The notes beneath the pieces are model-generated. The model had not been told where the DNA came from, did no database searches, and saw nothing but the letters and a program-made list of their open reading frames with translations. Below are positions 32,421-39,278 of a stretch of DNA of 64,000 nucleotides, one piece after another (within the stretch, counting starts at the first letter, position 1; each line of letters opens with the position of its first letter). The DNA is from Streptococcus sp. oral taxon 431 (GTDB lineage: Bacteria; Bacillota; Bacilli; Lactobacillales; Streptococcaceae), in NCBI RefSeq assembly GCF_001553685.1, contig NZ_CP014264.1, forward strand, positions 1,496,001 through 1,560,000, read 5' to 3'. Made by a program: the position numbers and the translations under genes.

Positions 32421-35400
32421 TTAATCTTCTTTTCTTTTTGCAAGAAATAGAGCAGACATTGCTAGACTGAGGCTGGCAAGGAAGAAGAGATGCTCTGACT
32501 TGCTAGTACCAGTTTCTGGAAGTTTATCCTTCGCTTCTTGTTTAGCTGCTACTTCCTTCATTTCTGGTTTAGCAGTATCAACTGATTTCTGATCAAGTTT
32601 TTGTACTGCAGCATCCTGTGGTTTATGATCCAGTTTCTCTGTTGATGGAGTCTGTACTTGACTTCCAGGTTCCTCAGTTAATGGAGTTTGTGGTTTATGT
32701 CCTGGCTCTCCTACTGATGGCGTTTGTGGTTTAGAAACTTGTTTATAAACTACTGCAAAGTGTCCTAGCTGACTAGTTGTAAACTCAACTGTACCTTGAC
32801 CATTTGTAAAGCTTACTGCTTCACCTGATGCAGTGTAATATACTCCAGCTACTTCACCAGAAACTGGAAGTCGAACGAGCACTACACCCTTCGCTTGAAC
32901 CTCATGCTTATCTTTATCAACTAGATGAAGAGCATAAGCATCAAATTTCACACCTTGTAGACTTTGGTCTGTTACTTTTTGAACTTTAAGATTAAGATCT
33001 GTAGCCAAATCTCTTGCAAGTCCTGCAACTACAACTCCTGTAGTCTTATCTGACAAGACACGAACACCTTCAGTTGGTTTGTCTACTGTAGGTGCAGCTT
33101 GGTCACCTGCTGTTCCGATTGCACCTGTATACTCTGGAACTTCGTGTACAGCGGCTTCAGCTGCGTTCACACCACCAGTAAACTCTGGTACTTCATGGAT
33201 TGCGGCTTCAACACCATTTACACCACCTGTGAATTCTGGAAGGTCAACAACTGGTGCTGCTTCATCACCCTTGCTTGAAGTTGGAGTTTCAGGTTTAGGT
33301 TCTGGAGTTGGTTCTGGATCTGGAGTTGGGGTAGGTGTTTGGTCTTTCAATTGGTCGAGATAATCTGTAAAGAATTCAAGCATTCTATTTGTTAAGAGAT
33401 GATTATCTGTTGCAAATTTCATGCTGGCAACAACACTTGCTACTTCCTCTTGATTACTCTTATCAGTCAATTTTTGAGCTTTTGCCAAGGCTGCTTCATA
33501 GGCTGCAGTATCAAGACCAGTTTCAGCAACTTGTGGACGAGCAAAGATCAATTCTGCAGCTGATTGATATTGGTTTTCAGTATCACCGTAGGTTCTTGTT
33601 CCAGTTAGAACAATCTTTTTAGCCTTGATAGTCTTACCAAAGTCAATATCTTTTGGTTTATTATTGTTAGCCCAATTGGTTGCATTGAAGGTATGTTCCT
33701 TACCTGTTTCATCAGTAACCACAAGAGTGACATCTCTCAAGTTACCATTTGATCCTGAACCACGTGGAACGTAACGGAAGCCAGTAATTTCAGTTGGTTC
33801 CTTCAAGACCATAGTTGCAGGTTTACCAACATCTCCTCCGCTCCATGATGTATGCCATAGACTTGACACGTTGCTATCAAAGGCATTTTCAAGACCTTCA
33901 CCAGCCTGAGCAGGAGCTGTAAGACTTGCAAAGTCATCTGCTACAAGAGCTGTTTTCTTCATCACTAAAGCGTCTTTAAGAGCATTGACCTTAGCAATTT
34001 CAGACTTAGCTTCTTCTACACTGATATCATCGTCTGCTTGGCTGAGGTTGAAGACAGCTTCTTTCAAAGCATCCATTGTTTCTTTAGTGTAGTTAGTCAT
34101 CGCAACAGTTGGAAGATAGTTCTTGACAGCATTTTCTGTCATCATCTTACCAGTCAAGACAATTTCTTCGATTTGAAGTCTGTCCATGATGAAGTCATTG
34201 TAGCCACGGAAGTTAGCATTACCACCTGAGTCTCCTCGAGTGTTACTTGCATTACCTGTAGAGTAGATACCTACCCAGGTATCGCCAGTTTCTGCACCTG
34301 TTACTAGGAAGGTTGCACGTTTCGCTTTCTTAGAATCTGTCCAAGTATTTGCCAATTCATGCATTTCCAAATTACTTGCTTGTCCAGATTGGAATTCTCC
34401 CTTACCGACTACAAAGGCGTAAGTACTGTCAGATCCAGCTTCATAGTCAAATGTAATACGATAGGTCTTGCCTGCTTCAAAGCGGAAGTTTTGCGGAATT
34501 GTTTGGTAAACCAAGTTACGACGACTTACAAGTCCATTTGTCTTGAGTGACCAATTTCCTTCGATAACATCATCAACTTTCTTGCCGTTCCAGTCACGTT
34601 GTGTGTATGGAGCATGTTTTTCAGACAAGTGAGTACGGTTATCTTCAACACCCTCGATACCACCGATGACAAATGGGAAGATACCTTGACCAACATTTTC
34701 AAAGTCTTGTTTGAAGACGCCTGTTGCAGTATCGTGACCGTCTCCGTACATATTTGATTCATTTTCAAAGGTACGAATTTCATCGAAGTAAGTTGCCTCA
34801 TCGCCTGCTTCACGACTCAAGGTCAAGGTTACATTTGATACATCTGAACCTGTTGTGAAGAAAGCATACATATTTTGGAAGTAACTTGTGTTATCAACTG
34901 TTGCATTGCTACGACGAGTATTGTGAGCATAGGCTTTTACATAGTTGAGAGCGAGTGACTTGTTTGTGTAGTTGGTTACTTCTTTTTCACCAGTATTAAC
35001 GGTAATACTTGCTTTAGCATCACTACGGTTGTCGACACCGACATACACTGCGTATTTAGTATTTGGTTTCAAGCCAGTCAATTTTTGAGTGAGACTAACT
35101 TTTTCTTTATTGCCTTGGATGCGGAGCATTTGGTTTGCACCTTGAGACTTCACGATTTCAGCCTTAGAAGCATCTCCTGAAATCTTCCAATGATCCAAAG
35201 ATTCACTGTTAAATCCTTGGTCATAGATGTGCATTCCTTCACTCCATGACATTTCTGGATTTGTTTGTTTAGAACGATAGAGAACATATGGCTGATTTGC
35301 AGTGAGATCAAGGGTAATCTTACCGTCTTTCACGGCAACTTCTTTTTCCTCAGTCTTACCTTGGTCAGTTAGTTTATAAAGGTAAACCTTACCATTTGCC

Positions 35401-39278: not shown

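What the first reader, a model, noticed from the sequence alone, without database searches (positions are those of the whole stretch)
32421..39278. GH101 O-glycanase fused to a serine protease in one wall-anchored protein
Residues about 150-353 form a complete trypsin-fold protease (His182, Asp239, Ser310 in PGASGGG), followed by a flexible KPAEN linker and then GH101 with both catalytic acids (Asp1056, Glu1088) at the same 32-residue spacing as in SpGH101. The shift relative to SpGH101 (about 292 residues) matches the protease insert. Coupling removal of core-1 O-glycans to cutting of the mucin or IgA hinge backbone would be a self-contained glycoprotein-degrading machine. The pairing is not part of the characterised pneumococcal enzyme.
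Basis: partly seen in the sequence, partly recalled or inferred. Interest (0 to 1): 0.82.

Follow-up and report, generated by a model that had tools for sequence, protein, structure and literature searches.

The report
Protease-tipped O-glycan-cutting surface enzyme
A streptococcus related to mouth and throat commensals carries a wall-anchored enzyme that should remove sugars from mucin-type proteins and also bears an intact-looking protein-cutting domain at its tip, a pairing common in its close relatives but missing from the pneumococcal enzyme that laboratories study.

Summary
The fusion is real: one 2285-aa frame (32421-39278, minus) encodes YSIRK signal, trypsin-fold domain (residues 150-354, triad His182/Asp239/Ser310), acidic linker, complete GH101 endo-alpha-GalNAcase (Asp1056/Glu1088), F5/8C module and LPXTG anchor. 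Not an artefact: of 247 Streptococcus genomes 83 have GH101, and 57 of these the protease domain beside it (55 in one frame). The pneumococcal enzyme sits inside a 51-protein group whose other 50 members carry the domain, so SpGH101 most likely lost it by in-frame deletion. The closest relative is the trypsin-like domain of Gemella M26 IgA1 protease, then glutamyl endopeptidases. The module also tips GH29, GH33 and M26 proteins; the triad is kept in 72 of 72 aligned copies, under purifying selection. Activity is unproven: the one tested relative was inactive and did not help cut IgA1, so the IgA-hinge idea is unsupported; coupling to mucin breakdown is plausible, untested. The fusion is already in print (BMC Genomics 2025, a figure legend). 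In ten searches of an open-access library I did not find the pneumococcal loss, the GH29 and GH33 partners or the intragenic mosaic. Verdict: confirmed, a known architecture; mechanism open.

The parts
32421..39278 (-). whole gene: YSIRK - trypsin-like (S1B-type) - linker - GH101 - F5/8C - SIALI-17 repeats - LPXTG, 2285 aa
39183..39260 (-). YSIRK-type signal peptide motif, residues 7-32
   Evidence: Pfam PF04650
38217..38831 (-). trypsin-like serine protease domain, residues 150-354
38733..38735 (-). catalytic His182
   Evidence: same residue in 72 of 72 aligned domains
38562..38564 (-). catalytic Asp239
   Evidence: 72 of 72 aligned
38349..38351 (-). catalytic Ser310 in PGASGGG
   Evidence: 72 of 72 aligned
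38304..38306 (-). His325 (GIHQNG), position of the S1-pocket His of glutamyl endopeptidases (that role is recalled, not tested)
   Evidence: 14 of 14 representatives
38034..38210 (-). Lys/Glu/Pro-rich linker with KPAEN repeats, residues 357-415
37485..38033 (-). GH101_N domain, residues 416-598
   Evidence: PF17995
35772..36644 (-). GH101 catalytic domain, residues 879-1169
   Evidence: PF12905 E 1.5e-121
36111..36113 (-). Asp1056, equivalent to SpGH101 D764 (nucleophile role recalled)
36015..36017 (-). Glu1088, equivalent to SpGH101 E796 (acid/base role recalled)
33549..33905 (-). F5/8 type C domain, residues 1792-1910
   Evidence: PF00754
32508..32522 (-). LPETG sortase motif, residues 2253-2257
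39307..39321 (-). cre-like (CcpA) site 28 nt upstream of the start codon (consensus recalled)
   Evidence: a similar site within 150 nt upstream in 48 of 76 other GH101 loci examined

Best explanation
A cell-wall-anchored surface protein with two enzyme domains. The C-terminal LPXTG fixes it to the wall, so the N-terminal serine protease domain should be the outermost part, with GH101 below it. The protease domain belongs to the S1B-like group that includes the trypsin-like domain of some M26 IgA1 proteases and the glutamyl endopeptidases. Most likely it is a functional endopeptidase, possibly made as a zymogen that needs N-terminal trimming, which cuts extracellular protein (host glycoprotein first, neighbouring surface proteins second) while GH101 removes core-1 O-glycans from the same class of substrate. 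The fused form is the usual and probably ancestral state in the mitis-group clade around the pneumococcus, and the pneumococcal SpGH101 lost the protease by an in-frame deletion. Shown: architecture, fold (model plus sequence match), conserved triad, purifying selection, distribution, nesting of the pneumococcal form. Inferred: proteolytic activity, substrate, cooperation with GH101, an acidic P1 preference.
For: Fold and family. Triad in 72 of 72 aligned copies (60 different sequences) from six architectures, His325 in 14 of 14 representatives; identity of the non-GH101 copies in alignment A2 to the window copy is 27-41%. Median dN/dS 0.044 for the protease, 0.053 for GH101_N, 0.034 for the GH101 core, over 122 usable of 500 sampled pairs. 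Distribution: GH101 in 83 of 247 Streptococcus genomes, protease domain beside it in 57 of 83, in one frame in 55. Loss in the pneumococcus: L094 lies in a 51-row group (SH-aLRT 100) whose other 50 rows have the domain; its N-terminal region is 264-265 residues shorter than in 7 of 10 compared relatives and 269 shorter than in the other 3; in relative L111 imperfect 19-nt direct repeats 795 nt (265 codons) apart flank that stretch. Partners: GH29 in 54 of 55 places of that type; GH33 and M26; that these act on host glycans and IgA1 is recalled.
Against: GhTrp, the closest solved relative with the same triad and the same His, showed no activity in vitro, its loop 2 blocks the S1 pocket, and it did not contribute to IgA1 cleavage (PMC11970125 and PMC9637739). 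Triad conservation is expected too for a zymogen that is rarely activated, and names no substrate. The pneumococcal enzyme does without the domain. The nesting rests on a quick ML tree of one gene (SH-aLRT only, midpoint root) in a recombining group with one pneumococcal genome. On the whole tree the protease label needs 4 changes, so a single gain is not shown outside the 51-row group. The direct repeats seen in L111 were not reported for L069, the other relative tested.
Confidence: 0.55

Rival explanations
1. Dormant or non-proteolytic module: the domain keeps the trypsin fold but serves as a binding or structural tip, or as a zymogen rarely activated, one option its authors left open for GhTrp.
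For: GhTrp inactive, S1 pocket bifurcated by loop 2; the authors cannot rule out loss of protease function with gain of another one (PMC11970125).
Against: Triad in 72 of 72 aligned copies and His325 in 14 of 14 representatives, down to 27% identity; a pure binding module would not need Ser, His and Asp. Loop 2 after GIHQNG is one residue longer in the GH101-type copies than in the M26-type copies, so the GhTrp result may not carry over.
Confidence: 0.25
2. Self- or neighbour-processing protease: the domain trims its own N-terminus or linker, or sheds surface proteins, so that GH101 or the protease leaves the wall.
For: Acid-rich flanks (19 Glu and 9 Asp in residues 41-146; 12 Glu and 6 Asp in the 60 residues 357-416) would suit a Glu-preferring enzyme. 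No distinct free-standing relative came up in a domain-length search (20 hits, 60-99% identical to the window copy; the short ones look like pieces of the same genes, not checked one by one).
Against: Acidic linkers are common in such surface proteins (recalled); no cleavage site is seen or tested; the pneumococcal form lacks the domain.
Confidence: 0.15
3. IgA1-hinge protease coupled to O-glycan removal.
For: The IgA1 hinge carries core-1 O-glycans (recalled); the module also occurs in M26 proteins.
Against: The domain did not contribute to IgA1 cleavage in the Gemella M26 enzyme (PMC9637739, passages); the window's genome has three M26 matches elsewhere, none listed with this domain.
Confidence: 0.04
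4. Assembly or annotation artefact.
For: None found.
Against: Single-contig genome; 55 of 57 genomes have both domains in one frame; 726 database proteins match the domain and the 120 listed all carry GH101 domains.
Confidence: 0.01

Closest known systems
[quoted passage not shown] 2 legend)
   Same: the same fusion, in commensal S. mitis/S. oralis-type strains
   Different: one legend sentence within a study of seven strains (which of them is not said in the section I read); no survey, direction of change, glycosidase partners beyond GH101 or catalytic residues in that section
GhTrp, trypsin-like domain of Gemella haemolysans M26 IgA1 protease (PDB 9ect)
   Different: partner is an M26 metalloprotease, not GH101; loop 2 one residue shorter; shown inactive in vitro
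SpGH101/Eng of S. pneumoniae (PDB 3ecq, 5a55-5a5a)
   Same: GH101 part homologous from before GH101_N to the F5/8C region, same catalytic acids, signal and anchor
   Different: lacks the protease domain and about 265 N-terminal residues
Glutamyl endopeptidases (Bacillus, Staphylococcus) and staphylococcal exfoliative toxins
   Different: at most 24% identity in those alignments; free-standing secreted enzymes (recalled), not fused to glycosidases
CbpG of S. pneumoniae
   Same: surface-attached trypsin-like domain; reported to degrade fibronectin and casein (PMC8592123, passages)
   Different: held by choline-binding repeats, no glycosidase; not found in genome G039 with the GH29-type domain as query

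Membership tests
SpGH101 family endo-alpha-N-acetylgalactosaminidase (NCBIfam NF040533) | score over the curated cut-off across the whole model | tested here: met
   4084 bits against 2900, model positions 1-1961 of 1962
SpGH101 family endo-alpha-N-acetylgalactosaminidase (NCBIfam NF040533) | catalytic Asp and Glu 32 residues apart | tested here: met
   D1056, E1088; same residues in pneumococcal L094
SpGH101 family endo-alpha-N-acetylgalactosaminidase (NCBIfam NF040533) | release of core-1 disaccharide from glycoprotein | not testable with these tools
   needs an assay
S1 peptidases, S1B-like | chymotrypsin fold | tested here: met
S1 peptidases, S1B-like | His-Asp-Ser triad in order | tested here: met
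   H182, D239, S310; 72 of 72 aligned copies
S1 peptidases, S1B-like | proteolytic activity, acidic P1 preference | not testable with these tools
   His325 conserved in 14 of 14 representatives; its meaning is recalled, not tested
GhTrp-type trypsin-like domain of M26 IgA1 proteases | closest sequence and structural relative | tested here: met
GhTrp-type trypsin-like domain of M26 IgA1 proteases | lies in an M26 metalloprotease | tested here: not met
   no M26 domain in the window protein: a relative of the domain, not a member of family M26
GhTrp-type trypsin-like domain of M26 IgA1 proteases | loop 2 blocking the S1 pocket | not testable with these tools
   model coordinates are not given; the loop is one residue longer here than in M26-type copies
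IgA1 proteases | M26, M64 or S6 catalytic domain | tested here: not met
   none reported by Pfam for this protein at E <= 0.01

The most novel reading that the evidence does not exclude
A portable S1B-like protease tip has been mounted on at least four kinds of wall-anchored enzyme that act on host glycoproteins (GH101, GH29, GH33, M26), giving commensal mitis-group streptococci paired sugar-then-backbone cutters. The pneumococcus has lost it from GH101, and its sampled genome shows no GH29-protease fusion either, so the laboratory reference enzyme shows only half of the ancestral activity.
Probability: 0.3. Interest if true: 0.65.

Novelty: new member of a known kind. Interest (0 to 1): 0.42.

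Why it matters
SpGH101 is a reference for bacterial O-glycanases in the airway. If the form usual in its relatives carries a working protease, accounts of how oral and throat commensals take mucins and other O-glycoproteins apart that rest on pneumococcal enzymes alone are incomplete, and a commensal-to-pathogen difference becomes a simple, testable domain loss. It also offers a second protein in which to ask what the unexplained trypsin-like domain of M26 IgA1 proteases does.

Tried and rejected
Artefact: rejected. IgA-hinge protease: disfavoured by the GhTrp result. Free-standing ancestor of the protease: no distinct one found; the domain-length search gave 20 hits, 60-99% identical, some with only the trypsin domain annotated; I did not check whether each is a piece of a longer gene, and that search reaches close relatives only. 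Wider occurrence: with the 10-row profile 29 of 395 genomes of the order match, 24 of the same genus and 5 more weakly in three other genera (I did not read those 5). CbpG in the pneumococcal genome G039: not found with the GH29-type domain, which does not show that it is absent.

Papers: searches (ten, the cap). Searches returned no paper. The report of the fusion came through, in a paper that one search had also listed. That the GH29 and GH33 partners, the loss in the pneumococcus and the mosaic are not in print rests on these searches of an open-access library alone, and is weak. No supplementary file was looked at (none allowed). Passages of PMC6593409, PMC12687362 and PMC12557822 gave nothing on the fusion.

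Correction of my own labels: the rule called L133 and L144 'duplicated GH101_N', but their second match lies inside the catalytic part. Corrected counts over 83 proteins: protease 57, duplicated GH101_N 13, sialidase 5, no further domain seen 8. The tree carries the old labels; the protease label is not touched. Of the 5 sialidase proteins only L068 was scanned with Pfam; the other 4 share its long N-terminal offset and its group (SH-aLRT 99). Of the 8 without a further domain only L101 was scanned.

Parts of sets used: the triad count is over the 72 copies that I aligned (57 GH101-linked, 15 others); not all places listed were aligned, for example 2 of the 55 GH29-type ones. One search kept 122 of 500 sampled pairs (dS of all three regions between 0.05 and 1.2); L076 and L096 were not in it. 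In one search, 76 GH101 loci were examined for the upstream site; loci without a clear YSIRK start or with too short an upstream stretch were skipped. Direct repeats were sought in two relatives only, L069 and L111, and the pair that fits the loss was reported for L111 alone.

Full report
What is there. The minus-strand ORF 32421-39278 is open for 2285 codons. Pfam finds, in order: YSIRK signal (7-32), Trypsin_2 (167-324, E 1.9e-13), GH101_N (416-598), mutarotase-like (626-878), GH101 (879-1169, E 1.5e-121), GH101 C-terminal beta sandwich, domain 5, galactose-binding-like domain, F5/8C (1792-1910) and the anchor. NCBIfam names it SpGH101 family endo-alpha-N-acetylgalactosaminidase at 4084 bits against a cut-off of 2900. 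That model, 1962 positions long, already contains the protease region: the GH29 protein of this genome matches model positions 1-349 and a sialidase protein matches 122-474, through stretches that include their protease domains.

Distribution and direction of change. Of 247 Streptococcus genomes, 83 encode GH101 and 67 the protease domain at E <= 1e-6. In 57 of the 83 the domain lies beside GH101, in 55 of 57 in one open frame; L076 is split by a frameshift in the linker and L096 by an assembly gap. The other 26 show, in the N-terminal slot, a second GH101_N domain (13), a GH33 sialidase (5, one checked by Pfam) or no further domain with my queries (8) (two labels corrected as told under Tried and rejected). 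On a maximum-likelihood tree of the GH101 core (quick search, SH-aLRT support, midpoint root) the pneumococcal protein L094, which shows few differences from the solved SpGH101 3ecq over the part printed, lies within a 51-row group (support 100) in which the other 50 rows have the protease. On the whole tree the protease label needs 4 changes, so the state deeper in the tree is open. L094 is 264-265 residues shorter in the N-terminal region than 7 of 10 compared relatives and 269 shorter than the other 3; in relative L111, but not in L069, imperfect 19-nt direct repeats 795 nt apart flank that stretch. A deletion between short repeats in the pneumococcal line is the simplest account. Records whose contigs carry the domain include some labelled S. 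infantis, S. mitis, S. oralis and S. pseudopneumoniae (labels as deposited).

Mosaic. Six proteins (L122, L124, L125, L126, L129, L130) are 93-96% identical to the window in the protease and 82-86% in the region before it, but only 67% in the GH101 core and 55-56% in GH101_N, whereas 27 other relatives have a 90-93% core with a 68-76% protease. The N-terminal part has therefore most likely been exchanged as a unit at least once.

Other partners. The window's genome has a second such protein, YSIRK - trypsin-like - GH29 fucosidase - LPXTG, 2086 aa, whose GH29 part matches SpGH29 structures best. Across the genus 54 of 55 GH29-type protease domains share an open frame with a GH29 match, and 54 of 57 genomes with the GH101 fusion also have the GH29 fusion. 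The domain also occurs as tandem copies, in a wall protein without another enzyme domain (L152) or in front of a sialidase (L153), and in M26 proteins (L150, L151), one of them in the pneumococcal genome G039. That these partners act on host glycans or IgA1 is recalled; that they share substrates with the protease is inference.

What is known. PMC11970125 (parts 1 and 2 of 3 read): GhTrp has a trypsin-like fold, showed no measurable activity, and loop 2 blocks the S1 pocket; the authors suggest a zymogen activated by N-terminal cutting and cannot exclude loss of function. [quoted passage not shown] The poorly ordered part of loop 2 (their residues 868-872) corresponds, by my count on the alignment, to the stretch right after GLHQN, which is one residue longer in GH101-type copies than in M26-type copies. 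PMC12211801 (section 12 read whole): the Fig. [quoted passage not shown] So the fusion is in print. PMC8592123 (passages): CbpG, another surface trypsin-like protein, degrades fibronectin and casein. PMC11861894 (passages): mainly actinobacterial O-glycanases; no protease fusion in the passages seen. PMC9937060 (passages) lists pneumococcal Eng and SpGH29.

Judgement. Fold and fusion are near certain; that the domain is a working protease I put at about 0.6; that it works with GH101 on host O-glycoproteins at about a third; IgA-hinge cutting at a few per cent. The GhTrp result is the strongest evidence against activity, the unbroken triad and low dN/dS the strongest for it.

Noticed in passing
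window 24036-32264 (-): The next gene encodes a 2742-aa wall-anchored protein with both GH20 and GH84 catalytic domains and five F5/8C stretches; the NCBIfam GlcNAcase model matches below its cut-off.
   Followed up: partly
L068:2268-11819(+); also L065, L078, L097, L109: A group of GH101 proteins has a GH33 sialidase in the N-terminal slot where others have the protease: a possible desialylate-then-release enzyme (Pfam on L068 only).
   Followed up: partly
L153:5334-11057(+), L148, L154; L152, L155, L156, L159: Tandem trypsin-like domains in one protein, in L153 followed by a sialidase (Pfam on L152 and L153 only).
   Followed up: partly
L076:6871-8028(-): In genome G060 a frameshift in the linker separates signal plus protease from GH101, so the protease piece would lack an anchor. 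Described only.
   Followed up: partly
window 39307-39321 (-): A cre-like site 28 nt upstream of the start codon: 2 matches in the window against 1.27 expected by chance, but 48 of 76 other GH101 loci have one within 150 nt upstream, which suggests sugar-dependent control. Consensus recalled; the loci are related, not independent.
   Followed up: partly
L150:5667-12164(+): The sampled pneumococcal genome carries an M26 protein with the trypsin-like domain, although PMC11970125 describes the pneumococcal IgA protease subfamily as lacking it; this may be another M26 paralogue.
   Followed up: no
G040:C1:1482453-1483325(-) and G040:C1:1477707-1478534(-): GH101 and GH29 matches both lie in an open frame reported as 6585 aa, possibly one giant multi-glycosidase.
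   Followed up: no
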